Origin: Crocinitomix sp.
GTDB taxonomy: Bacteria > Bacteroidota > Bacteroidia > Flavobacteriales_D > Crocinitomicaceae
Direction: 5' to 3'
DNA length: 36,604 nt
Assembly: GCA_013138735.1 (NCBI GenBank)
Contig: WTCE01000077.1
Coordinates: 1 to 36,604 of the forward strand
Below, piece by piece: positions 12,370 through 28,863 of this stretch (positions within the stretch are counted from its first letter, which is position 1; every line of letters starts with the position of its first letter). The position numbers were made by a program, and so were the translations under genes. The notes under the pieces are model-generated. The model was given only the letters and a program-made list of their open reading frames with translations. It made no database searches and was not told where the DNA came from.

Positions 12370-13182
12370 ATGGAAAACAGAATAACAGAAAGCAGTTCCA
12401 ATCACAACGATTTGGAAAAAATGAGCATTAATCAATTGCTTACCAACATCAATAAAGAGGATCAATCGGTTGCTTTTGCAGTTGAAAAAAGCATTCCGCA
12501 AATAGAAACCTTTGTAGCTGCTGCATTGCAAAGAATGAAAACTGGAGGGCGCTTATTTTATATTGGCGCAGGCACAAGTGGTAGACTGGGCATTGTTGAC
12601 GCCTCTGAATGCCCACCTACTTTTGGAGTTGCGCACGGCCTTGTAGTTGGTATCATAGCGGGTGGCGATTCAGCCATTCGAAAAGCGGTGGAATTTGCAG
12701 AAGATGATACAGAGCAAGGCTGGAAAGACCTCATGGAGTTCGAGATCAACGATAATGATAGCCTTGTAGGAATCGCCGCATCTGGTAGCACGCCCTATGT
12801 GATTGGCGCTTTGGAAAAAGCAAACGCAAATGGTGTTTTAACTGCCGGAATAACCTCAAATATGAACAGCCTATTGGCCGCAACAGCAGAATACCCAATC
12901 ACGCCAATTGTTGGACCTGAATTTGTAACTGGAAGTACACGTATGAAATCTGGTACGGCGCAGAAACTTGTCCTCAATATGATTTCAACTAGTCTAATGA
13001 TTGGACTTGGACGTGTAATTGGCAACAAAATGGTTGATATGCAATTAAGCAATGATAAATTGGTAGATCGCGGCACCAATATGGTGATGAACGAATTGGG
13101 AATTACTTATGAAGCGGCAAATGTTTTATTGACAACTCACGGCAGTGTTCGCAAGGCGGTGGAAGCCGGGAGAGCAGTTTAA
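12370..13182 (+). CDS. murQ: N-acetylmuramic acid 6-phosphate etherase
   Basis: MurQ cleaves the lactyl ether of MurNAc-6-phosphate to give GlcNAc-6-phosphate and D-lactate in cytoplasmic peptidoglycan recycling. The chosen ATG gives 270 residues beginning MENRITESSSNHNDLEKMS, which matches the family N-terminus. An in-frame ATG at 12310 would add 20 residues encoded by AT-rich spacer and is rejected. The SIS sugar-phosphate fold shows in GRLFYIGAGTSGRLGIVDASECPPTFG. Glu80 (ASECPP) and Glu111 (EFAEDD) align with the catalytic pair Glu83/Glu114 of the E. coli enzyme. GPEFVTGSTRMKSGTAQK is the C-terminal signature. A hairpin follows its stop codon. No MurNAc kinase or transporter gene is adjacent. 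Confidence 0.93.
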   Translation: MENRITESSSNHNDLEKMSINQLLTNINKEDQSVAFAVEKSIPQIETFVAAALQRMKTGGRLFYIGAGTSGRLGIVDASECPPTFGVAHGLVVGIIAGGDSAIRKAVEFAEDDTEQGWKDLMEFEINDNDSLVGIAASGSTPYVIGALEKANANGVLTAGITSNMNSLLAATAEYPITPIVGPEFVTGSTRMKSGTAQKLVLNMISTSLMIGLGRVIGNKMVDMQLSNDKLVDRGTNMVMNELGITYEAANVLLTTHGSVRKAVEAGRAV

Positions 13183-13210
13183 AATAACCTTCACTAAAGT
13201 TTAGGTTATT
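13183..13210 (+). terminator. Stem-loop after murQ
   Basis: AATAACCT (13183-13190) pairs with AGGTTATT (13203-13210), 8 bp with a 12-base loop, immediately after the murQ stop codon. The following sequence is only moderately T-rich, so termination may be weak. Confidence 0.45.
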
Positions 13211-13373
13211 AAACAGTTTGAGTTTTGACGATTTGACGGGTTTATTCAATGTACAATGGGCAATTATCAATACGAGTTGATGGGGTTTAATGTTGGAATG
13301 ATTTAATGGGTTTAATGCTGGAATGATTTACATCTTTCTTAATTCCTATTGACTAATGACTATTCCCTATTGA
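13211..13373. repeat. Short direct repeats between murQ and lanB
   Basis: The spacer holds two imperfect direct repeats. GGGTTTAATGTTGGAATGATTTA-like copies lie near 13280-13303 and 13303-13330. A CCTATTGACTAAT-like pair lies near 13345-13357 and 13366-13378, the second copy running into the lanB stop codon. A 13-base piece, ACTAATGACTATT (13352-13364), recurs at 18266-18278 on the other side of the lanthipeptide cluster. No gene is seen. Confidence 0.5.
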
Positions 13374-16300
13374 CTAATTCTTTCTTCCATAGTCGGTTGA
13401 ATATTTTTTTCTAAGGAAATCGTAAATCACTAACTCATGAAGACGTTGCTTGCTTCTGAAGATTCTATTAATGGACATGTGCATATAACTTGAAATCTGA
13501 TTTTCTAAAACAGCATTTTCAGCCTCATTAAACTCGGCTAAAATAGTGGTAATAAGTGGTTGAATATTGGTCATTTTGAGCTTCAGCAAATCAAAAAGAG
13601 GCGCGAATTCTTCGGCTAAATCACTATCGTCATTGAATAAATCGTGGATTTCATCCTTATGTGCCCTATACTTTTTATCAATTTGTTTATTGAGGTGCTT
13701 ATTCATATTGAATTCTTCACCAAACCCATTCCGAAGTCTTGTCATGAGATTCTTTTTACGAATTAAATCGAATTGAAAGGCATCCAAAAGAGCATCAATC
13801 AGCTTCAATGTATAGAGCCATTTAACTTTTTCTCCCTCCAAACCTTCATCCAATAATTCCAAAACGGAAATGATGTTAGCACTATCATAATAGAAAATTT
13901 GCTCTGCAATTTCAATTGTATTGCTCCCATACCTTTCCAACTCGCGTTGATAACCATCTGTTTCTAATTTCCAAATCAATTTCGATTCAATATAATTTGA
14001 GCAATGCTCATGAAAATCACTAATCACGATCCCTAAGTCCTGCTTATTACATAATTGAAATCGAATTCTTAAATGAAAGTCAGGGCTGCCATATCGAATA
14101 AAAAACCAATTTTTAATTAGACCTGCTTTTCGCCATTTTTCGGTCAATGGTTTCACTATTTTAGTAAGAATTTCGTCAGCTGTTTTGAGCCCACAAAAAA
14201 CTTTGTAATACAACCATTCTGACCCAATAGCAAAGTCACGCTGAACATTTAAATTGGACGACTCAGAAAATCTCTCAACTACCTCAACCCTCTCTTCAAC
14301 TTCTTCTTTTGCAACTTGATTTTTTGTTAGAATTGCAATACATTCATTCGCAAAAGTTTGGGTACTGTCTTGCTCACATTTAAAATCATTTTTACTCTGA
14401 AACAAAAATTCCTTAAGCACAATAAGTGGCTTGTTTTTAATTGATTTCAAAAAGATTTTTAGACTTAACTGATTTTTCAAATTCACGAGTAGTTCATTGT
14501 CGCCTTCTGTGAATGAGATTAGATCAGGCAATTTCCATTTCTCCTTCAATTGAGCAACTTCCTTAATTATATCAACACCTTTAGCCAATAAAGATTTGAC
14601 ATCATTTTTATTTAGCTTCCAAGTTGCGGGTGCAAGGATGACATTCTCAACTTGAACCCTTGGGAAAAATTTAAATTCTGTGCTCAAATTACCCCAATCA
14701 AAAAAGATTCCATTGGGTTGATTCCGGTTTTGCAAATCACATAAAAAATGATAAATAGGCAATGACTTAGAACTATAATTATGGGCATTTGCCAACCTTG
14801 GAATCACTTCTTTGTTCAAGCGTTTTGATCTGAGTTTGATTTGCTGATTGTTATCAATTGACAAATACAAGTCTTCCAATTGAATTTGATTGGTTCTTGG
14901 TAGGAAAGATTTAGCCAAATAAGGAATTTCATAATCCCGAAACTGCGGTCTGGCTAAAACATTCCCTGTTCTTGCCCTAGGCAGGTAGACAATTTCAGCA
15001 AGGATAGCATTTGGCTTCAAAGCTTTTTCGTGCTCCGAAATTTCGTCCATTATGTTTTTAATCTCTGAATGCCCCGCACCGAAACGACCTAATAAATTAA
15101 CGGCACTTGTTCCTCCTGTTGATTTGAGTAAAATTTTACCATTATCCACATGACTGAATATCGTGGAAATAGAATCTGACAAGCTTGACCAATCCTCCTC
15201 AAAAGAACCTAAGTCCTTTTCCTCCATGTGAATGATTTGCTCATTATTTTGATAGGCCGCTGTTAATTTTCCCATTAAAAAAGAATCAAACTTCTGCCAT
15301 TTTTGATCCCGGCTATCAGCCACTTCTCCTGGTATGGCAAGATCATGCACCAAGGGATTACTGTCTCCCGTTTTATTATTATTTCTTGCATAACCAATGC
15401 CAGTCTCATTATCGAGCGCTATTAATAAAGGAACCTCAGTATCCTGATAACGCTCATAAAATCGATTTTTAAATTCCATCAATTGCGGCTTACCCTCCGA
15501 ACGTGGTGTCATTTTATTTACAATCCGAAGCGCTCGTTTTAACGATTTTTGAACGTCATAACCAATTATATTTGCTTCATTTGTTGCTTCGAAAAGATCT
15601 GTTTGAAAGAGTTTCCCTAATTTATAGGAGATAGCTAATTGATCCAAACTCTTGGCTAATTTTTTATATTTCTCAACTGAATTAAAGAGATTACCATCAA
15701 TTAGCCCCAATTCCTTTTTGATGCTTTTCAAAAATTCAATGTAATTTTTTAGTTTTTCATTTTGCGTAGTATCCCAAATCCGTTCGAGTGTAATTAATAC
15801 ATCATTCAAGGTTTCTTCACCACTCACAGACGGCTCCATTTCACTGGTCAAAATTTGCGCTTCTATCAGTTGAAGGATGAACTGCTCTGCCTCTTCTGAC
15901 GTTACCTCCTCATCCATTAGTTTTAGGACATCAATCAAGTCATTAATTGCAGCACCAGATTCCGCAGCTTTCAACAAGGCTTGAATGTAATCGGAATTAT
16001 CTATAGAACTGATGCGATAGGCCCGCGTTTCATTCTTATAATAATATTCGGTATAGCGTATTTCATCTTGAATTTCGTATAAACTGTTATTCGGGAAAAA
16101 TAATAAATAGGGCTGAACAAGACTATCTTTGGAAAACAAATAGGCCAACTGACAAGAAAAATTCATGTCGAGTTTTGTACTTCGAAATAAGCGTTTATGA
16201 TCGATTTTTATTTCCGTTTTCGCCCCCCATTTCGCGATACTACATTTAGCAAACAGACCAAAAGGAGTTGGTCTTGTATGCAATCTGCTAGCATACTTGA

Positions 16301-16511
16301 GTAGTGACATTTTTACGCGATCATCTTCGTCCAAAACAATACCCTCAAGCCACTTTTGACATTCATTATGCAGGTCAGGCGAAGCTAAAAAAAGTGCTTC
16401 ACTAATCGATTCCTGTCCGTACAACTCCCTTAATTCCTCTTCAGAAAACTCAGTCTTAACCGGATTTAAAGGTGTTCTAAGAATAATTTTATTATAAAAC
16501 GAATAGTTCAT
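13374..16511 (-). CDS. lanB: Class I lanthipeptide dehydratase (LanB), full length
   Basis: LanB enzymes use glutamyl-tRNA to glutamylate Ser/Thr of the precursor and then eliminate glutamate, giving dehydroalanine and dehydrobutyrine. The 1045-residue protein has both parts fused, as in NisB. The N-terminal glutamylation domain begins with a YNKIILRTPL start and includes RPTPFGLFAKCS near 76-87, LGRFGAGHSEI and YLPRARTGNVLARPQFRDYEI. The C-terminal elimination domain (SpaB_C, thiopeptide-type bacteriocin biosynthesis) runs from about 762 (SEWLYYKVFCG) and includes WFFIRYGSPDFHLRIRF. Length is normal. It is the last gene of the lanA-lanC-lanB run, 30 bases after lanC, so probably translated from the same message. 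Confidence 0.93.
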   Translation of the reverse strand: MNYSFYNKIILRTPLNPVKTEFSEEELRELYGQESISEALFLASPDLHNECQKWLEGIVLDEDDRVKMSLLKYASRLHTRPTPFGLFAKCSIAKWGAKTEIKIDHKRLFRSTKLDMNFSCQLAYLFSKDSLVQPYLLFFPNNSLYEIQDEIRYTEYYYKNETRAYRISSIDNSDYIQALLKAAESGAAINDLIDVLKLMDEEVTSEEAEQFILQLIEAQILTSEMEPSVSGEETLNDVLITLERIWDTTQNEKLKNYIEFLKSIKKELGLIDGNLFNSVEKYKKLAKSLDQLAISYKLGKLFQTDLFEATNEANIIGYDVQKSLKRALRIVNKMTPRSEGKPQLMEFKNRFYERYQDTEVPLLIALDNETGIGYARNNNKTGDSNPLVHDLAIPGEVADSRDQKWQKFDSFLMGKLTAAYQNNEQIIHMEEKDLGSFEEDWSSLSDSISTIFSHVDNGKILLKSTGGTSAVNLLGRFGAGHSEIKNIMDEISEHEKALKPNAILAEIVYLPRARTGNVLARPQFRDYEIPYLAKSFLPRTNQIQLEDLYLSIDNNQQIKLRSKRLNKEVIPRLANAHNYSSKSLPIYHFLCDLQNRNQPNGIFFDWGNLSTEFKFFPRVQVENVILAPATWKLNKNDVKSLLAKGVDIIKEVAQLKEKWKLPDLISFTEGDNELLVNLKNQLSLKIFLKSIKNKPLIVLKEFLFQSKNDFKCEQDSTQTFANECIAILTKNQVAKEEVEERVEVVERFSESSNLNVQRDFAIGSEWLYYKVFCGLKTADEILTKIVKPLTEKWRKAGLIKNWFFIRYGSPDFHLRIRFQLCNKQDLGIVISDFHEHCSNYIESKLIWKLETDGYQRELERYGSNTIEIAEQIFYYDSANIISVLELLDEGLEGEKVKWLYTLKLIDALLDAFQFDLIRKKNLMTRLRNGFGEEFNMNKHLNKQIDKKYRAHKDEIHDLFNDDSDLAEEFAPLFDLLKLKMTNIQPLITTILAEFNEAENAVLENQISSYMHMSINRIFRSKQRLHELVIYDFLRKKYSTDYGRKN

Positions 16512-16541
16512 AATCGTGAAAGCAATTTTATATTTTCTTGA

Positions 16542-17723
16542 TTAACTGAGTAATAGAGCGGCATCCCATGCGGAAGGATTAGCGTCCTCAGAAATGTAAG
16601 CCAACAAGCCCAATCCGATCCCTGCTACACCAGATAACAAACCATGTTTATTCTCCCATTCCCCTTTCACACTATCCCAACTTTTGAATCCCGCAATTCC
16701 ATCTTCAAATACGGCTGAATCTAATGTCAACTGCATCCAATGATCCGAGGCTTTTTTAAATGCAGCAACTCCCGTATATTGATAATAGCGGTTGTACATA
16801 TGGGAAATCCCTATTTTACCATGACAAAAGGTAGCGTCTGATGGCATTTGACTTGAACTCAAGCTCCGTTCAATTGTATTTAATCCTATTTCAATTGCTT
16901 TTTCTGCTAATAAGTCATCCTTCAAAACCAATGCCGCCTGATACAATGCTAAACCAATTGCAATATTGCTTCTACACCAACCTAAGTGCGTCTTCAGTTC
17001 TTTCTTATCATCCACAAGTCGCGAAGGAATCAACCCTGATTCTTCATCTTCGTAGGACAATAGAAACCTAACAGTGTCATTTAGTAAGGGCTTCACTTCT
17101 TCGATTCCTTTTTCCACCATTTTTGTCAAGACTAAAATTTTACTTGCTTGACCGTGTGAAATATGAAAATTGATAACGGTGCAATCTTCCTCACCTTCTA
17201 AATAATCAGAATCCTCACGCCAGGTGATTCCCTTATCTGATTTAACGCCTGTTTTTTCAAGCAATTGTGCCAACTCAATTAACGTTTCTTTAAGTTCTAA
17301 TTTATGCGGATACCTTTGTATTAAATGGACAAAAGCTCCTAAGCCACCGTGCATAAAATCATGATTGTTCCCTTTCAATTCTCGTCTCGCCGAAGCAATG
17401 ATGTCGTCATCAAAATGCCCTAAAACTTCCTCATCTAAATCAATAAAACCGCAAACTTTTAAATGCTGTAGAAACCATGCAAATCCAGCTATGCCATTGG
17501 CAAAAGTTGGACGCGCGTCAATTGAGCCAAGCTGATTCGAAATGAACGCTATGAGATCGTTTTCAAGCTTAGGATTAGGAGTCTTTAAATAGACTTGATG
17601 ATACAATCTGAATAATAGAACACCCGATTGACCCGAATACAATGAATGATGGCCATTAGGATCAAAATTCCCATTATACAATTCGTGAAACTCCTTCAGT
17701 TTGGAGGTTATCTTTTCTTTCAT
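16542..17723 (-). CDS. lanC: Lanthionine synthetase C-like cyclase (LanC)
   Basis: LanC cyclases join cysteine thiols to dehydrated residues to form lanthionine rings at a zinc site. The 393-residue product shows the toroid repeats of the family (GxxGFAWFL, MHGGLGAFVHL, HGLLSGVAGIGLGLL). The zinc ligands are a Cys near 249 in HLGWCRSNIAIG and the Cys-His pair near 299-300 in CHGKIG. The His in HISHGQAS near 189 corresponds to the acid/base histidine region of NisC. The start ATG lies only 7 bases after the T-run of a hairpin that separates it from lanA, so its expression probably depends on read-through. It is followed 30 bases later by lanB. Confidence 0.92.
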   Translation of the reverse strand: MKEKITSKLKEFHELYNGNFDPNGHHSLYSGQSGVLLFRLYHQVYLKTPNPKLENDLIAFISNQLGSIDARPTFANGIAGFAWFLQHLKVCGFIDLDEEVLGHFDDDIIASARRELKGNNHDFMHGGLGAFVHLIQRYPHKLELKETLIELAQLLEKTGVKSDKGITWREDSDYLEGEEDCTVINFHISHGQASKILVLTKMVEKGIEEVKPLLNDTVRFLLSYEDEESGLIPSRLVDDKKELKTHLGWCRSNIAIGLALYQAALVLKDDLLAEKAIEIGLNTIERSLSSSQMPSDATFCHGKIGISHMYNRYYQYTGVAAFKKASDHWMQLTLDSAVFEDGIAGFKSWDSVKGEWENKHGLLSGVAGIGLGLLAYISEDANPSAWDAALLLS

Positions 17724-17730
17724 TTTTAAG

Positions 17731-17764
17731 AAAAAAGAATTGCTCCATAGATTGGAGCAATTCT
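17731..17764 (-). terminator. Attenuator-type terminator between lanA and lanC
   Basis: On the minus strand, 12 bases after the lanA stop, a perfect 12-bp stem (arms AGAATTGCTCCA and TGGAGCAATTCT, 17736-17747 and 17753-17764) with a 5-base loop is followed by six T. It has the form of an intrinsic terminator. Because lanC begins just downstream and has no visible promoter, it probably works as a partial terminator giving more lanA than lanC-lanB message. Comparable hairpins follow the structural gene in other lantibiotic operons. Confidence 0.82.
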
Positions 17765-17775
17765 AAATTAAATGT

Positions 17776-17991
17776 TTAGCAATGTTTCACTTTCGAGTCA
17801 CAATGGCATGTATATGTGTCCATCACAGTCATTTGCGAATCGCAATGACATGTCAACGTATCCATTACTGTCATTTGTGAATCTTTTGGAGCTTCTTTCC
17901 CTCCAACAACAAGATTTTGCTCATCTTCACTTAGACGTGAGATGGTTCGTTTGTTAAGGTCGAACTTACCTTTTAGATTAATCTTTTTCAT
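17776..17991 (-). CDS. lanA: Class I lanthipeptide precursor with two tandem nisin D/E-ring motifs
   Basis: The 71-residue peptide has a leader (1-31) starting MKKINLKGKFDLNKR, with FDLN at 10-13 resembling the FNLD box bound by LanB, and ending VVGG (28-31). The 40-residue core has 5 Cys (48, 50, 62, 64, 71) and 9 Ser/Thr. Residues 37-50 (DSQMTVMDTLTCHC) and 51-64 (DSQMTVMDTYTCHC) are tandem copies; a short tail DSKVKHC follows. Each copy ends in TxTCHC, the pattern giving interlocked rings D and E in nisin (TATCHC) and subtilin (TLTCNC). The nisin A/B ring region is absent. The GG end suggests a C39-type peptidase, but none is encoded nearby. It heads the lanA-lanC-lanB operon. Confidence 0.92.
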   Translation of the reverse strand: MKKINLKGKFDLNKRTISRLSEDEQNLVVGGKEAPKDSQMTVMDTLTCHCDSQMTVMDTYTCHCDSKVKHC

Positions 17992-18280
17992 AAATTTTGA
18001 TTAATTAATTTCAGTTTTGACTCCTGCTTTTTTAACGACTTAAGGAGTCCTTAAGTCATAATGTCTTTTTGTAAAAGGTTATTTTTTGATCGTATAGTAG
18101 AGCGAGTTAATGCTCCTCTAAGGTAATCATTTTTTCAATAAGCCGAATGAGGTGATAGAATTTATTTCGAAGTTGAATTAAAATTCATTTAGGACAATTA
18201 AAGTCTGTTCTAAATTTAGACTCACACCAAATTATCATAAAAAAACTAAGGACTAACGACTAGGAACTAATGACTATTTA
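17992..18280. promoter_or_regulatory. Upstream region of lanA with a 21-bp imperfect palindrome
   Basis: The 289-base gap contains GACTTAAGG-AGT-CCTTAAGTC (18037-18057), a 9-bp inverted repeat 46 bases before the lanA start codon. One arm can pair instead with GACTCC at 18019-18024 (GGAGTC at 18044-18049), so alternative leader structures are possible. No exact TAnnTTTG box is seen. Neither side of the palindrome has the T-run of a terminator, so an operator or leader switch is more likely. A degenerate GGACTAACGACTA-type repeat lies at about 18249-18278, just outside the nuclease gene. Confidence 0.5.
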
Positions 18281-21094
18281 TTATACATCACAATGCTCGC
18301 AATACAAGGCTTTGGAGTTATGCTCAAAAAAGAAATCTTCGTTATATAGCTCCTCAATAGTGTGGCGGAGCTCTTCTTCAAAGGCATCCAAAATATCATG
18401 TGATAAAATTTCAGAATCTCCTTTTTTAGGAATTACATTTTGCAGCCATTCGTCTACGTTGACCATTGAAATAATTCCTGCTGAGAAGTTGTGATATTCA
18501 GGATAAGTGGCGCGAAACATTAAGGCATACATCAATAATTGACGTCCATATCCTTTTTTATCATGCTGCATCAAAGTCTGCATACCTTCTTTTTCCAACA
18601 CTTTTGCACCAAGACTAATTTTGTCGAAATTACATTTTCCAGACTTATAATCAATGATGCGATAATGCGATCCAAATTGCTCAATACGATCTGCGTTACC
18701 CTCAATTTTAATGGTTTTCATTTCGCCATTAATTTCCCATTGATAAGTTGCCGAAAGTGTTTTTTCTAAATCAATAATAAATATTGGATCTTGGGTTTTC
18801 TTGATCTCAACAATTTGCTTTGCTAAAAAGCGATCTACAAATCCTAATGAAACATCAAAGGACAATTTATTTTGACCATACTTTATGTCATTTTCACTAA
18901 AATCTTGCAAATAAGCTGCCTTCAGGTATTTTTCAATATTTTTCCTTTCTCCCTCGAGCACTTGAGCATCTAATTTCGTTTTTTTATCCAAAAAATTTCT
19001 TCGGAAAATGTCCTCCAAAACATTATGGATTTTAGTACCAAACGTTGATGATTCAATATTCTCCTCCACCGTCACATTTTCCTTCATTCCCAATACGTAT
19101 CGGTAATAAAAGTCAAGCGGGCAAGCTACCAATTTATTAAGAGCAGATGGGGATAAACCATTTGCTAATCGATCATCCAATTTCAATTGTACGGCAAGGG
19201 TACTTGAATATCTTAAATCTGAAATTTCTGCTGCACGATCATCTGATGTATAGGTGAAAAAATCCATTTTATGCCCTAATTCAAGGTTCAATTCATTTTC
19301 CAACTGAGTTATAAAACGACTTTTCTCACTGGCCCCTACTCCATCCGTTGTTGAATTATAAGTGAAATAGATATTTTTAGAACGGTGCAATAAACGATAA
19401 AAATGGTGGGCAAAAATTGCTTGTCGATCCTCCTCTACTGGCAAGCCATGATTTAATTTCAAATCTCTAGGGATAAATGAATTAACCACATTTGTTTTAG
19501 GTAAATTCCCTTCATTCATTCCTAAAATGATCAAATTTTCAAAATCCAAGGTCCGCGTTTCCAGAATCCCCATCACTTGTAATCCCTCAATTGGATTCCC
19601 TAAAAACGAAAGCGATTCTGACTGCCAAAACTGATAGAACAATACTTTGAATGACTTTAAATTCAATTGATGTGGATATTGCAATGCAATCGCTTCAAAC
19701 TTTTTAAATCCTCTAGCAAAATGATAGACAATTTCAAGGTCAATTTGTCGATCAGATTCTGCATTTTTTAAAGCTTCGTAAAGTGCCCGTGTTAATTCAT
19801 TAAACGCAACAAACCCATTACGTAAAGGTGTTTTCCAAACCTCAAATAAATGACCAATAGCATTTAATTCAGGAAAAATCTGCATCAACTCTTCTCTATG
19901 AATAAAAATTTTATTCTTTTTTACAATTTCATTTTCAAAGTCAATTAAGCGACTTTGATCACCAATTAACTCAACCAAATAAGGATGATCTAAATAATTT
20001 AATAATGATTTGTGATAAATTCGAGTTGAATTAAATTTTTGAAAATTAAACTGCAAATCAAAAACAATGTCAATCAAGCCTTTTAAATGCGAAAACTTGA
20101 GGGGATAACCCATAGTAATATTGGCGCGTTCTATTGTTTCAGGCAAAGACCGTGTTAGTGGAATAAGTAATGATTCATCCGCCAAAACAATAGCCGTTTG
20201 ATCCATATTAGCGTTTTCAGCTACTAAATTTTCAATGATGCTTCCCGCAATTTTAGTTTGCGCAATTTGCTGAGCCGTTTCAATGACTTCAATGTGTTTT
20301 GGTTGGGCATTAAAATGATTTCCAAGTTCCTTTTTCAAACCCCAACGGTTTATTATTTTCCGATAAAAATGCCCTGCTTCGTGTTCTCTGTTCTCAAAAT
20401 AACTTTCATCAATATCAAAAAAGACATCCGCTAATTTTTCTCGCCGCAAATAATTCAAGATTTGCTCTTCACTATTTGATAAAGCATTAAAACCAATAAA
20501 ATAATAATGCGCCGCCAAGTTCGAATCAATATCGGGATTTATGAGTTGGTCATAAAAATTTTTATATGCTGCTCCTTGATAAAGAACCTGCCTTTTTTCT
20601 AATTCTTCATTTAATTTCTGATAGTATTCGGGCAACTTGTCCCAAAGAGATAAATACTTTTCTTGCCCACCTGAGAGTTCTTCTTCCAAAAAACTCCAGT
20701 TTTCAATGTCCTTTATATTTCTAAGATCTCGAAAAATTAATTTTGGAGGAATGAGGTAACGATCAATTTCATCAAAATCTGACAAGATTATTTTACCCCA
20801 CTTAATAAAACTATTAAAATCCTCTGCTTCATCCTTCTCAATAACACAATGAATCTCAAAGAGAATAAAAAGCAATTCAATTTGAGAGATGATTTTTTCG
20901 GAAGTATTTTGATCAACCCACTCATTAATGGTCAAAATTTCAGGCGAAAATTGTGCTGCTCCTTTTTGCTGTGCTAAATAATTTTGAATGTAAACTGATG
21001 CCCGTTTATTGGGTATAATTATGGAAACATCCTTTAGGTTATCAGGATGACTTTGATAAATTAGTTCAATTTTCTCCTTTAAAAAGGTTTCCAT
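18281..21094 (-). CDS. PD-(D/E)XK nuclease family protein, AddB-like
   Basis: The 937-residue protein resembles the AddB/RexB side of AddAB-type helicase-nucleases that process double-strand breaks. A helicase-like N-terminal half (VSIIIPNKRASVYIQNYL; LTINEWV) lacks a clear Walker A. A nuclease domain at the C-terminus carries GNADRIEQ and RIIDYKSGK (about 805-815), the D-x-K core of PD-(D/E)XK. Cys658 (VACPLDFYYRYVLG) and a C-terminal Cys932-x2-Cys935 fit the iron-sulfur staple of AddB. The fourth cysteine expected about six residues later is missing because the protein ends two residues after Cys935. The partner AddA-like helicase is not in this window. The gene stands alone between lanA and bcp. 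Confidence 0.8.
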   Translation of the reverse strand: METFLKEKIELIYQSHPDNLKDVSIIIPNKRASVYIQNYLAQQKGAAQFSPEILTINEWVDQNTSEKIISQIELLFILFEIHCVIEKDEAEDFNSFIKWGKIILSDFDEIDRYLIPPKLIFRDLRNIKDIENWSFLEEELSGGQEKYLSLWDKLPEYYQKLNEELEKRQVLYQGAAYKNFYDQLINPDIDSNLAAHYYFIGFNALSNSEEQILNYLRREKLADVFFDIDESYFENREHEAGHFYRKIINRWGLKKELGNHFNAQPKHIEVIETAQQIAQTKIAGSIIENLVAENANMDQTAIVLADESLLIPLTRSLPETIERANITMGYPLKFSHLKGLIDIVFDLQFNFQKFNSTRIYHKSLLNYLDHPYLVELIGDQSRLIDFENEIVKKNKIFIHREELMQIFPELNAIGHLFEVWKTPLRNGFVAFNELTRALYEALKNAESDRQIDLEIVYHFARGFKKFEAIALQYPHQLNLKSFKVLFYQFWQSESLSFLGNPIEGLQVMGILETRTLDFENLIILGMNEGNLPKTNVVNSFIPRDLKLNHGLPVEEDRQAIFAHHFYRLLHRSKNIYFTYNSTTDGVGASEKSRFITQLENELNLELGHKMDFFTYTSDDRAAEISDLRYSSTLAVQLKLDDRLANGLSPSALNKLVACPLDFYYRYVLGMKENVTVEENIESSTFGTKIHNVLEDIFRRNFLDKKTKLDAQVLEGERKNIEKYLKAAYLQDFSENDIKYGQNKLSFDVSLGFVDRFLAKQIVEIKKTQDPIFIIDLEKTLSATYQWEINGEMKTIKIEGNADRIEQFGSHYRIIDYKSGKCNFDKISLGAKVLEKEGMQTLMQHDKKGYGRQLLMYALMFRATYPEYHNFSAGIISMVNVDEWLQNVIPKKGDSEILSHDILDAFEEELRHTIEELYNEDFFFEHNSKALYCEHCDV

Positions 21095-25380: not shown

Positions 25381-25752
25381 ATGAAATTAGGAGCCTTTTC
25401 GGTCAGTTTAAATGTTAAAGACATCAAAGCCTCGCAAGCCTTTTACGAAAAATTAGGATTCACAATATTTGGCGGAGACTTAAAAATGAACTACCTTATC
25501 ATGAAGAGTGAGGATTCATTAATTGGACTTTTCCAAGGGATGTTTGAAAACAATATTATCACATTTAATCCGGGATGGAGTCAAAACGCAACAAATCTTG
25601 AAGCTTTTGATGATGTCAGAGAAATTCAAGCCCAGTTAAAATCGAAGGGAATTAAATTAGATCGGGAGGCAGATACTGCAACAACTGGCCCGGCTAGTAT
25701 CACAGTTACTGATCCTGATGGAAATGTAATTTTAATTGATCAACACCGATAA
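25381..25752 (+). CDS. VOC (glyoxalase/bleomycin-resistance fold) family protein
   Basis: A 123-residue protein with the paired beta-alpha-beta-beta-beta modules of the vicinal oxygen chelate superfamily: FSVSLNVKDIKASQAFYEKLGFTIFGGD at the start and SITVTDPDGNVILIDQHR at the end. The metal-ligand positions are not all obvious (no histidine in the first strand), so it may bind rather than catalyse. It is the last gene of the plus-strand group, 61 bases after the thioredoxin-like gene; a 144-base spacer separates it from the peptidase gene. Confidence 0.85.
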   Translation: MKLGAFSVSLNVKDIKASQAFYEKLGFTIFGGDLKMNYLIMKSEDSLIGLFQGMFENNIITFNPGWSQNATNLEAFDDVREIQAQLKSKGIKLDREADTATTGPASITVTDPDGNVILIDQHR

Positions 25753-25863
25753 ATTCTGCGTAAATAAATGAAAAAATTCCCGCAAACATTTTCAATATCT
25801 CCTTATACAAAGCGAATATCAAACATTGCAAAATACAATTAACCAAAAACACTAACTTAACAG

Positions 25864-25879
25864 AAGCGTTTACACGCTT
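25864..25879. promoter_or_regulatory. Palindrome upstream of the secreted peptidase gene
   Basis: AAGCGT-TTAC-ACGCTT, 6-bp arms with a 4-base centre, lies 17 bases before the ATG of the gene at 25897. No exact TAnnTTTG box is present in the spacer. This could be an operator, with low certainty. Confidence 0.3.
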
Positions 25880-25896
25880 GACAAAGCCTTTACCCT

Positions 25897-27801
25897 ATGA
25901 AAAAATATTACTTTCATTTCTTTGCTTTGCTTTTACTGCTAGCAAATAATAGTTTCGCTCAAACGGATGCCAATGCACCAATCAACGGCATAACAATTTA
26001 CATTGATTATCCAGATGCAACAGCTGCAGTAACTGCTGACCAATTGGACAGCTTATTGAATGGCATTACTTATAGTGAAGATGGGGTAGAACGAACCTTT
26101 CGTGCTTATTGGCAACAACAAACAAGGCGGAACATTGATTTGACGCATGACGTTTTTTTTTACACGGCGCCCGAACCTGTTGCTTATTATGAAGCATTAC
26201 CTTGGTTTGAAGGCATTCTATTATGGCAAGATGCTTTGGAATATGTAATAGCGACTTATCCTGATTATAATTGGGATGGCTTGACCTTGCACGAAGACGG
26301 AGACCCAGGACCAACCGGCGCCTTGCGATCAGTTATGATAATTAGCAGTGCTTGGGGACCAGCAGGGGTTGGTGCAGCGCACGGGGCAAATTGGACTTTA
26401 TCAAATGGCGAATATGTTGGACGGATTTATGGCTCGGTGTTACAAGCACCTTGGGACATTGACAATAATATTTTTATGACATTGCATGAAGCGGGACATG
26501 CTGTTTTTGGTTTTCCAGACACTTACGATACAGAATATGATTCTGGAGGCAACTCGTTTTACACATTAATGTCGGGTGGGAAACCAGATGTTGAACCTAT
26601 TGGAGGACCATTTTTAGTTGAATACAATTGGGGACATATTTTAGAACCTGAGGCAGGTACAACAACCACATTTACGTTGCGCGCTGATAGCGATAGTGTT
26701 ATTGCGATTCGGAACCCGCATGATCCGCTTGAATATTTCACACTCGAAGCAAGGAATAATTCGCACATTGGAAATTCACTCTTCCCGGTTCCGCTTGGTT
26801 TGTTGATTTGGCATTCAGATTCCAAAGTAAACACTTCGAACAGGCAAGAGGATATGACGCCATTAATGCACTACAGACATTCGATTGAACAAGCAGATGG
26901 ATTATTCGAACTGGAAGGTGCATTAGAACCAGGTGGTAATGCCGGTGACATTTATTTAGCTGGCGACTCCTTTACTCCAACATCAACCCCAAGTACTAAT
27001 TGGTGGTCAGACGAGGTGTCTGGTATTGAAATTACAGCCATTGAATTAATTGGTGCTAATCACATTCAATTTACTGTTACAATTCCTGAAATTCACACCG
27101 ATCATTATCCAGAAATTTCTCCAGCGGATTGGACATTGATTTCTGCCACCCCACCTCAAGCAGGTTATGAAGGAGAAAAAGCTTTTGATGGAAATTTAGA
27201 GACTTATTATCATGTCCCATGGGGAAATACTGAACCCCGTTCCCATGATCTTATTATTGATTTGAACGAGGACTATACTCTCAATGAATTTTACTATACA
27301 GCTAATGATAATCGTTCTCCACCTTGGGAGGGAAGAATAGAAAATTATGAATTATACATAAGCGAAGATGGTATAGATTGGGGAGCACCAATTGCAGCCG
27401 GCACCTTTTTTAGAACTGGCATACGACAATATATACTCTTCCCCGAAGTAAGTGGCAGGTATCTAAAATTTGCGGCAGTTAATTCTTTTGATGATGATGT
27501 GCGCACATCTGTTGCTGAGATTAATTTGAGAGGATATCCAACAGCCGAGGCAACATTAGCCGAAGAAAGTCAACAAACATTCAACCTATATCCAAATCCA
27601 GCCAATGACATTTTATACATTCAGTCCAATTCCACAGAACCTTTTGCTTTTGAAGTTTACACTATGAGCGGAGAAATGGTCAGCAGCAATCAAAATTTAA
27701 GCAAGCTAACAATTGATGTTTCAAACCTTAACAGCGGTGTGTATTTCGTAAAAGTGAGCACGGCCAAAAAAACTGAAATTTTAAGATTCATTAAAAATTA
27801 A
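25897..27801 (+). CDS. Secreted M6-like zinc metallopeptidase with F5/8-type C domain and T9SS type A sorting domain
   Basis: The 634-residue protein has a signal peptide (1-22, ending NSFAQ). The peptidase domain holds the zinc motif HEAGH (His197, Glu198, His201) followed by FGFPDTYD, where the aspartate after the short FGFP stretch fits the third-ligand pattern of M6 (immune inhibitor A-like) peptidases; LMSGG is the expected Met-turn region. A discoidin-like F5/8 type C domain (about 400-545, EKAFDGNLETYYHVPWG onwards) probably binds carbohydrate. The last 75 residues (FNLYPNPANDILYIQ to LRFIKN) are a type A T9SS sorting domain. It is thus an extracellular or surface protease. A beta-helix lipoprotein gene follows 6 bases later. 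Confidence 0.9.
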   Translation: MKKYYFHFFALLLLLANNSFAQTDANAPINGITIYIDYPDATAAVTADQLDSLLNGITYSEDGVERTFRAYWQQQTRRNIDLTHDVFFYTAPEPVAYYEALPWFEGILLWQDALEYVIATYPDYNWDGLTLHEDGDPGPTGALRSVMIISSAWGPAGVGAAHGANWTLSNGEYVGRIYGSVLQAPWDIDNNIFMTLHEAGHAVFGFPDTYDTEYDSGGNSFYTLMSGGKPDVEPIGGPFLVEYNWGHILEPEAGTTTTFTLRADSDSVIAIRNPHDPLEYFTLEARNNSHIGNSLFPVPLGLLIWHSDSKVNTSNRQEDMTPLMHYRHSIEQADGLFELEGALEPGGNAGDIYLAGDSFTPTSTPSTNWWSDEVSGIEITAIELIGANHIQFTVTIPEIHTDHYPEISPADWTLISATPPQAGYEGEKAFDGNLETYYHVPWGNTEPRSHDLIIDLNEDYTLNEFYYTANDNRSPPWEGRIENYELYISEDGIDWGAPIAAGTFFRTGIRQYILFPEVSGRYLKFAAVNSFDDDVRTSVAEINLRGYPTAEATLAEESQQTFNLYPNPANDILYIQSNSTEPFAFEVYTMSGEMVSSNQNLSKLTIDVSNLNSGVYFVKVSTAKKTEILRFIKN

Positions 27802-27807
27802 TAAAAA

Positions 27808-28863
27808 ATGAAAAAACCGATTGCCATCTTATTGATCTTATTCGTTGTGATTACAAGTTGTAAAAAGAACAAAGTCATTGATAATTTAGAGCCAGGCCTA
27901 ATCGAAAATCAAACTTTTAATAGTACGGTCTTAATTGATGGACATGACTATGACGGAACGGTGATTCGAAACTGTGTTTTTGAGGATATAGAAGGAGATG
28001 GTTTACAAATTAGAGATGTGGATGATCTATGCATTGAAAATTGTACGTTTAAAAGCATCACTGAAAATGCGATAAGATTTAGAGATAGTGGTGGTTCAGA
28101 TGGCGTTAAGATTATGCGTAATACGATTTTTGACATTGATCATAATGGAATTTTAGCTGCCGAGAACCATATTAACGCCACTATTCGAGAGAATGAAATT
28201 TACAATGTGGGACTATCAAAAGCAAGCAGTCTGACTGGGCACCCGCACCATGGGATTTATTTCCAAGGTTTTAATGTCGTCATACTCGAAAATGTCATCC
28301 ATGATGTCATCAATAATGATGGGAACTGCATTAGCATTCGAACCTATGGAAGGGTTGCTAAAAATATACTTTACAATGCTACTGACCATGGAATCAGTTA
28401 TTACTCAGATCATCCAGGTGATAATGGATTGCTCTTGATTGAGAATAATTTCATTTATAATAATGGGAAAAGAGGCGTTAATTTGGCGAGTAATGGAACA
28501 ACATCAAACCATATAGGTGAAGCAGTCGTTCGCTTTAACACCATTGTAACAAGCGATAAATCGCCGCTTAGCGCCAATGATGGATTAACGGGTGTTGCGC
28601 TGAGCTTTATCGGCAATATTTTAATTCGTACGGATGGCGGCACCGAATTTATTTACAGTAGTTTGGCCTATACCGACTCTCACAATTTAACAGGTTCTGG
28701 AGATCTTGGATTTCAAGACTTCACCAATCGCAACTTACACATCAATGCTGGATCCGTTGCCAATACCTTCGGCACGGGTGCTACTAGTTCTCCGCCAGAT
28801 GACATAGATAATGAATTAAGAATTATAGGCGACATAGATGCAGGAGCTGATCAATTGAATTAA
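27808..28863 (+). CDS. Right-handed parallel beta-helix lipoprotein
   Basis: The 351-residue protein carries a lipoprotein signal ending VVITSC (Cys18) followed by KKNK. The rest consists of beta-helix coils recognised by repeating short strands with Asn/Cys ladders: VIRNCVFEDIEGDGLQIRD, LCIENCTFKSITENAIRF, VKIMRNTIFDIDHNGILA and later VILENVIHDV and LLIENNFIYNN. The fold is that of pectate lyase-like or alginate-modifying enzymes. A HPHHG motif in the middle could be part of an active site, but no family is certain. Its position directly behind a secreted peptidase suggests surface polymer handling; that is inference. Confidence 0.82.
   Translation: MKKPIAILLILFVVITSCKKNKVIDNLEPGLIENQTFNSTVLIDGHDYDGTVIRNCVFEDIEGDGLQIRDVDDLCIENCTFKSITENAIRFRDSGGSDGVKIMRNTIFDIDHNGILAAENHINATIRENEIYNVGLSKASSLTGHPHHGIYFQGFNVVILENVIHDVINNDGNCISIRTYGRVAKNILYNATDHGISYYSDHPGDNGLLLIENNFIYNNGKRGVNLASNGTTSNHIGEAVVRFNTIVTSDKSPLSANDGLTGVALSFIGNILIRTDGGTEFIYSSLAYTDSHNLTGSGDLGFQDFTNRNLHINAGSVANTFGTGATSSPPDDIDNELRIIGDIDAGADQLN

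What the first reader, a model, noticed from the sequence alone, without database searches (positions are those of the whole stretch)
17776..17991. Lanthipeptide precursor with a tandem duplication of the nisin/subtilin D-E ring motif
Core residues 37-50 and 51-64 are 14-residue copies ending TLTCHC and TYTCHC. In nisin (TATCHC) and subtilin (TLTCNC) this T-x-T-C-x-C pattern gives two interlocked methyllanthionine rings with Thr to Cys i/i+3 spacing. Here that module occurs twice, without the N-terminal lipid II-binding A/B rings, and ends in DSKVKHC with a fifth Cys. A peptide built of repeated D/E double rings would be an unusual scaffold. Ring pattern and activity are inferred.
Basis: partly seen in the sequence, partly recalled or inferred. 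Interest (0 to 1): 0.87.

Follow-up and report, generated by a model that had tools for sequence, protein, structure and literature searches.

The report
Lanthipeptide precursor with duplicated ring module
A bacterial genome, probably of the phylum Bacteroidota, carries a small gene cluster for a ring-containing peptide whose ring-forming segment occurs twice in a row and appears to have been kept that way by selection; the chemistry and the function still need laboratory proof.

Summary
The minus strand at 17776-17991 encodes a 71-residue class I lanthipeptide precursor (leader NF038153, E 1.3e-9, ending VVGG). Its core holds two adjacent 14-residue units, DSQMTVMDTLTCHC and DSQMTVMDTYTCHC, 13 of 14 identical, then DSKVKHC. 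The units differ at 9 of 42 bases, yet one codon only changes the residue; 0 of 200,000 random-substitution trials were as conservative. So this is an old duplication held by purifying selection. LanC and LanB genes follow. The 5.1-kb block lies between murQ and addB, whose protein matches stand 11-98 bases apart in four of eight sister genomes. Among 104 leader-bearing precursors that I held, only this one scored as a Cys-bearing tandem core; [ST]-x-[ST]-C-x-C occurs in 2 of 104. My searches found no relative of the core. Two tandem nisin D/E-like double rings are plausible but unproven: the core is slightly acidic, lacks a lipid II motif, and its LanC reads C-RSN where relatives mostly read C-YGD. 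Verdict: a real new variant of a known kind, less certain than first claimed.

The parts
17776..17991 (-). lanA: 71-aa precursor; leader residues 1-31 (17899-17991), core residues 32-71
   Evidence: NF038153 lant_leader_L1a E 1.3e-9, 38.1 bits against cut-off 22, residues 1-31
17842..17883 (-). first 14-residue unit DSQMTVMDTLTCHC (residues 37-50)
17800..17841 (-). second 14-residue unit DSQMTVMDTYTCHC (residues 51-64)
   Evidence: 13/14 aa and 33/42 nt identical to the first
17779..17799 (-). tail DSKVKHC (residues 65-71), possibly a shortened third unit
   Evidence: third-unit reading is inference
17736..17764 (-). 12-bp hairpin followed by TTTTTC between lanA and lanC; possible partial terminator
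   Evidence: (-17.4 kcal/mol, z -6.07); the number of terminator-like sites in the region is no more than in shuffles
16542..17723 (-). lanC, 393 aa, LanC-like cyclase with atypical C-RSN motif
   Evidence: PF05147 E 1.4e-36; alignments
13374..16511 (-). lanB, 1045 aa, full-length dehydratase (N- and C-terminal Lant_dehydr domains)
   Evidence: PF04738 E 3.9e-137, PF14028 E 2.7e-66
18037..18057 (.). perfect 21-bp palindrome upstream of lanA; candidate operator
   Evidence: only palindrome with 10-bp arms and a loop of 0-1 in the window; only match in the genome at up to 3 mismatches, but the reversed control pattern also matched once on each strand
13183..18280 (.). block between murQ and addB in this genome; four sister genomes have 11-98 bases between the matches of these two genes

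Best explanation
It is a small class I lanthipeptide cluster (lanA-lanC-lanB) of the Bacteroidota type. LanB would dehydrate Thr/Ser of the core, LanC would add the Cys thiols, and each 14-residue unit would close into a nisin D/E-like interlocked pair (Thr45-Cys48 with Thr47-Cys50; Thr59-Cys62 with Thr61-Cys64), with a separate ring Ser66-Cys71. An unclustered C39 peptidase-transporter (one lies on contig C126) would cut after Gly-Gly and export a 40-residue peptide. Shown by sequence: leader, LanB, LanC, tandem units, selection on them, a C39-ABC protein elsewhere in the genome. Inferred: dehydration, ring pattern, trans processing, role. The most likely role is a secreted antagonistic or signalling peptide that does not work as nisin does.
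For: Leader match; LanC and LanB domains on the same strand directly downstream; 90 of 95 columns identical in ten other LanBs are kept; T-x-T-C-x-C twice; seven of eight differing codons silent, 0 of 200,000 random-substitution trials as conservative; a 12-bp hairpin between lanA and lanC, as in lantibiotic operons that make more precursor than enzyme (the parallel is recalled); Gly-Gly with a full C39-ABC protein on contig C126. Walker et al. 2020 describe Bacteroidetes class I precursors with LxLxK leaders, many ending Gly-Gly, and C39 proteases (PMC7268733, passages).
Against: No ring was measured. LanC has Arg251 where NisC has Tyr285, and S252/N253 where all eleven aligned relatives have G/D, so its activity or selectivity may differ. 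Asp precedes Ser38, Thr45, Ser52, Thr59 and Ser66; as I recall, acidic neighbours disfavour dehydration by NisB. The block holds no transporter, protease or immunity gene (no frame over 76 aa beside the three genes). No second species with this core was found, so co-variation cannot be tested.
Confidence: 0.55

Rival explanations
1. A class I lanthipeptide with a different ring pattern: for example Thr41 or Ser38 to Cys48 and Thr47 to Cys50 in each unit, with Thr45 left unmodified beside Asp44.
For: The whole unit, not only T-x-T-C-x-C, is held constant, including Ser38/52 and Thr41/55. A paper on class I lanthipeptides of Pedobacter lusitanus names an unusual ring pattern in its title (seen only as a reference; not held). 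The LanC motif is altered.
Against: T-x-T-C-x-C is the known short-ring arrangement of nisin and subtilin, and short rings usually form readily (recalled).
Confidence: 0.28
2. The cluster makes a dehydrated but mostly uncyclised or otherwise linked peptide because LanC has changed function; free Cys-His-Cys could bind metal.
For: C-RSN in LanC is unlike the C-[YH]-G-[DE] of most motif-matching frames; CHC units.
Against: Zinc ligands Cys250, Cys300, His301, plus Asp122 and His190 that match NisC Asp141 and His212, are kept. The residue at Tyr285 varies among LanC-type enzymes (Tyr, His, Lys, Asn; PMC9934072, passages). Other frames in the set also vary: L027, L032 and L113 depart from the motif, and eight lack Arg at the Arg280 position (read by eye).
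Confidence: 0.1
3. A multi-core precursor: the repeats are cut apart into separate short lanthipeptides.
For: Near-identical adjacent units, as in multi-core RiPPs such as microviridins (PMC5934393, start of the abstract in the listing).
Against: No protease gene in the block and no spacer between units; the last unit is different and short.
Confidence: 0.07

Closest known systems
Bacteroidota class I lanthipeptides with L1a / Gly-Gly leaders (NF038153)
   Same: Leader, Gly-Gly end, LanB and LanC neighbours; precedents in print are the pinensins and Pedobacter lusitanus peptides and a Runella cluster that gave 4-6 dehydrations when refactored (PMC9576775, passages). Whether those have this same leader model was not tested
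   Different: None of the other 103 leader-bearing precursors that I held scored as a Cys-bearing tandem core; LanC motif differs
Nisin / subtilin C-terminal rings D and E
   Same: T-x-T-C-x-C; nisin even shares M-x-T-x-T-C-H-C (nisin sequence recalled)
   Different: No lipid II motif; module repeated; slightly acidic core; different leader type. Nisin-like clusters have been reported in Bacteroidota (PMC12506125, passages), but that paper's most conserved core region is the CTPGC lipid II motif, which is absent here
Plesiocin-type graspetides
   Same: One peptide carrying repeated bicyclic units (PMC9576775, passages and a reference title)
   Different: Ester and amide rings made by ATP-grasp ligases (recalled), not thioethers

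Membership tests
Class I lanthipeptide | Precursor leader of a class I type | tested here: met
   NF038153 38.1 bits against cut-off 22
Class I lanthipeptide | Full-length LanB with both domains nearby | tested here: met
   PF04738 and PF14028 over residues 35-686 and 766-1037; 90 of 95 columns identical in ten others are kept
Class I lanthipeptide | LanC with zinc ligands and catalytic His | tested here: met
   C250, C300, H301, H190, D122 kept
Class I lanthipeptide | LanC residues matching NisC Arg280 and Tyr285 | tested here: not met
   His246 and Arg251 in their place. Both positions vary in other enzymes: Tyr285 per PMC9934072; the Arg280 position is not Arg in eight other frames, His in one, L057 (read by eye). 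So this does not exclude membership
Class I lanthipeptide | Thioether rings in the product | not testable with these tools
   Needs mass spectrometry
Nisin / subtilin family | Lipid II motif SxxxCTP(G/S)C | tested here: not met
   Absent from the core; motif as given in PMC7268733
Nisin / subtilin family | T-x-T-C-x-C C-terminal motif | tested here: met
   Twice
Nisin / subtilin family | FNLD-box leader without Gly-Gly (feature recalled) | tested here: not met
   L1a leader ending VVGG; the stretch FDLN at residues 10-13 is similar
Nisin / subtilin family | Transport, protease, immunity and two-component genes in the cluster (feature recalled) | tested here: not met
   No frame over 76 aa beside the three lan genes in 13183-18280; flanks are murQ and an AddB-like gene; 12 window frames were scanned in all, the rest of the window was not

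The most novel reading that the evidence does not exclude
A lanthipeptide scaffold built from repeated interlocked methyllanthionine double rings, the thioether counterpart of plesiocin-type graspetides, made by a LanC whose active site carries Arg-Ser-Asn after the first zinc Cys in place of Tyr-Gly-Asp.
Probability: 0.32. Interest if true: 0.65.

Novelty: new variant of a known kind. Interest (0 to 1): 0.48.

Why it matters
If the two units each close into a D/E-type double ring, this would show that nature builds lanthipeptides by repeating one bicyclic module, a ready template for designed repeat peptides. The altered LanC gives a natural test of which residues around the zinc are needed for cyclisation. 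The strict protein-level conservation of both units says that the repeat itself matters to the producer.

Tried and rejected
Chance similarity of the two units: rejected (0 of 20,000 shuffles). Recent slippage: rejected, since 7 of 8 differing codons are silent. Nisin-type lipid II binder: rejected for lack of the motif.

Relatives: whole-precursor searches gave self alone among 9 genus genomes, own included; none in plasmids or viral contigs (20 pattern stretches, none confirmed). Of 395 phylum-level genomes, own included, 67 had some match at E 1 or lower; the best foreign one was E 8.5e-4 inside a 585-aa frame, the others were judged from the table rows, not from alignments, and none covered the core with high identity. 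Of 132 pattern stretches in genome contigs one was confirmed (L002); it lies antisense inside a 1028-aa frame and was set aside as spurious. Leader-family searches, own genome included: 6 of 240 (family), 6 of 399 (order), 21 of 395 (class) genomes.

One search read minus-strand loci in the wrong orientation and was redone. The repeat finder did not report the 42-nt repeat (exact seed of 9); the comparison was done by script. A sigma-70 promoter scan gave 14 sites against a shuffle mean of 20.0 and is not used; its terminator count (4 against 3.8) is also no more than chance, so the lanA-lanC hairpin rests on its own length and fold energy. A Bacteroidota-type promoter pattern upstream of lanA was not found.

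Not in print: the searches listed no title or abstract start on a tandem T-x-T-C-x-C lanthipeptide core. These were listings and passages, in an open-licence library; the Pedobacter ring-pattern paper is not held. No structure was predicted.

Full report
What is there. One genome of the same family (G060) has a contig of 4,633,577 bases, the published length of the Fluviicola taffensis chromosome (PMC3236050, passages). So the host is probably a Crocinitomicaceae member of the Flavobacteriales (taxonomy of Fluviicola; the step to this host is inference). On the minus strand three genes follow each other: lanA (17991-17776), lanC (17723-16542) and lanB (16511-13374).

Precursor. LanA has 71 residues. 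Its first 31 match the class I lanthipeptide leader NF038153 at E 1.3e-9 and end in VVGG. Pfam has no match. The core is KEAPK, two 14-residue units and DSKVKHC. Nine Ser/Thr and five Cys lie in the 40 residues after Gly-Gly, with Lys 4, Asp 5, Glu 1, His 3, so it is slightly acidic, unlike the cationic lantibiotics (recalled).

The repeat is old and constrained. The two units share 13 of 14 residues but only 33 of 42 bases. Eight codons differ, seven silently. There are about 8.2 silent sites and 33.8 replacement sites, so silent sites are near saturation, while the one replaced codon (Leu46/Tyr60) holds two base changes. Random placement of nine substitutions (transitions half of all) never left one or fewer residue changes in 200,000 trials; the minimum was 2, in 121 trials. 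The test starts from one unit and ignores codon bias, but the margin is wide. The whole unit is constrained, not only T-x-T-C-x-C. The one variable position is the x between the two Thr, which in nisin lies inside ring D (recalled).

How special is it? From all loci that I held I took open frames of 36-160 residues (from the first Met; frames cut by a locus end included) and kept those matched by a home-made leader model of 12 seeds, dropping matches that ended before residue 20 or left under 8 core residues: 104 precursors with distinct cores, the window's included. A few may be cut copies of others. 101 of 104 have Cys, 22 have C-x-C, and 2 have [ST]-x-[ST]-C-x-C (the window, and one from G605, L043). 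Three passed my tandem score (adjacent units of 6-25 residues, matches minus 1.5 per mismatch at least 6): the window, DGNFLTA repeats without Cys in G024 (L147), and a His-Gly run in G753 (L053). The window is the only one with Cys. The sample is not random: it holds the best-scoring loci of the leader and LanB searches and chosen regions.

Enzymes. LanB is full length (PF04738 and PF14028) and matches solved dehydratases (9g04 at E 3.1e-51, 5ehk at 2.7e-21). Of 95 columns identical in ten other LanBs it keeps 90; the five departures are V331, Y509, F772, S809 and T1039. Its nearest relative in the genomes searched is in G052 of the same family, 46% identical; that cluster's precursors have unrelated cores. 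LanC matches PF05147 at E 1.4e-36 and, through an alignment, NisC (2g02, E 3.2e-30). It keeps the zinc ligands (C250, C300, H301) and the residues that match NisC Asp141 and His212 (D122, H190). But it reads THLGWCRSNIAIG where many relatives read like SRLAWCYGDLGIS: His246 for Arg280, Arg251 for Tyr285, and S252/N253 for Gly/Asp. Of 19 columns identical in eleven other LanCs it departs at three, two of them here. Among 33 motif-matching LanC-like frames in the held loci (some duplicates; the window's own counted twice) no other had C-RSN; L027, L032 and L113 depart from C-[YH]-G-[DE] in their own ways. The Arg280 position is less telling: it is not Arg in eight other frames (L027, L057, L067 with its copy L011, L113, L117, L123, L128, L133), and L057 has the same His (read by eye). 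The change aligns without a gap and the frame is open, so no frameshift is suggested. The Tyr285 position is thought to stabilise the enolate and is Tyr, His, Lys or Asn in different enzymes (PMC9934072, passages); Arg there would be new to that list. Arg280 is shown as functionally important in PMC7296275 (a figure legend) and proposed as essential in PMC9889658 (passages). The second LanC of the same genome, on C23, reads WCHGD with Pro at the Arg280 position.

Control and context. Between lanA and lanC is a perfect 12-bp hairpin followed by TTTTTC (-17.4 kcal/mol, z -6.07), which could act as the partial terminator known from lantibiotic operons (recalled). A perfect 21-bp palindrome lies 45 bases before the lanA start codon, the only one with 10-bp arms and a loop of 0-1 in the window. 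It is the only match in the genome at up to 3 mismatches, but the reversed control pattern also gave one match on each strand, so only its perfection sets it apart. In the 5.1-kb block no frame other than the three genes exceeds 76 aa. The genome has four C39 peptidase places; that on C126 is a full C39-ABC protein of 737 aa with a neighbour that matches HlyD weakly (E 1e-4, under the cut-off). Five of the 12 other LanB regions that I fetched (L131-L142) have next to LanB a frame that begins like that C39 protein (read by eye).

A gene island. murQ ends at 13182 and addB ends at 18281, facing each other. Of eight other genus genomes, four have 11, 14, 78 and 98 bases between the protein matches of these genes (G005, G001, G007, G008), G006 has 1,744 bases with what looks like remains of another gene, G002 has them on different contigs, and G003 and G004 could not be judged. 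No LanB was found in any of the eight at E 1e-20. So the block was gained in this lineage or lost in several. A 12-base direct repeat CTAATGACTATT stands at 13353 and 18267, just inside its two ends, and nowhere else on the + strand of the window. Sister junctions also hold short repeat-like filler, so it may not mark an insertion.

How it most likely works. LanB and LanC would turn each unit into a pair of interlocked short rings as in nisin D/E, and a C39 transporter elsewhere would cut after Gly-Gly and export the product. The leader, enzymes, repeat and selection are shown by sequence; dehydration, rings, export and role are inferred. Nisin uses rings D and E for membrane insertion after lipid II capture by rings A and B (PMC10257480, passages). 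This peptide has no lipid II motif and is slightly acidic, so nisin-like pore formation is unlikely. A secreted antagonist or signal is my best guess, with no direct evidence.

Verdict. It is a class I lanthipeptide of the Bacteroidota kind, new as a tandem Cys-bearing module among those I could examine, with an unusual LanC. The repeated D/E scaffold is a fair hypothesis at about even odds.

Noticed in passing
L132:2773-3663 and L131:7263-8171 (relatives G453, G769): Proteins of 296 and 302 residues near LanC/LanB carry a long N-terminal part, then a weak internal lanthipeptide-leader match (E 0.0084 and 0.0089, under the cut-off) and a Cys-rich tail: possible lanthipeptide precursors with a very long leader.
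   Followed up: partly
L147:2222-2458 (G024): A leader-bearing precursor (NF038153 E 1.9e-7) with five DGNFLTA repeats, no Cys, beside a frame that begins like a C39 transporter; perhaps another peptide class using the same leader.
   Followed up: partly
G000:C23:20364-20679 and 25481-28510: A second lan locus in the same genome: two similar precursors with GWSNFRTG cores, its own LanC (WCHGD) and a LanB 27% identical to the window's.
   Followed up: partly
window 18037-18057: Perfect 21-bp palindrome GACTTAAGGAGTCCTTAAGTC upstream of lanA, found once in the genome.
   Followed up: partly
window 13353-13364 and 18267-18278: Identical 12-base direct repeats just inside the two ends of the block between murQ and addB.
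   Followed up: no
L053 (G753:C2:75500-77500): A leader-bearing peptide ending in a long His-Gly run, next to a His-rich one: possible metal-binding peptides with a lanthipeptide-type leader.
   Followed up: no
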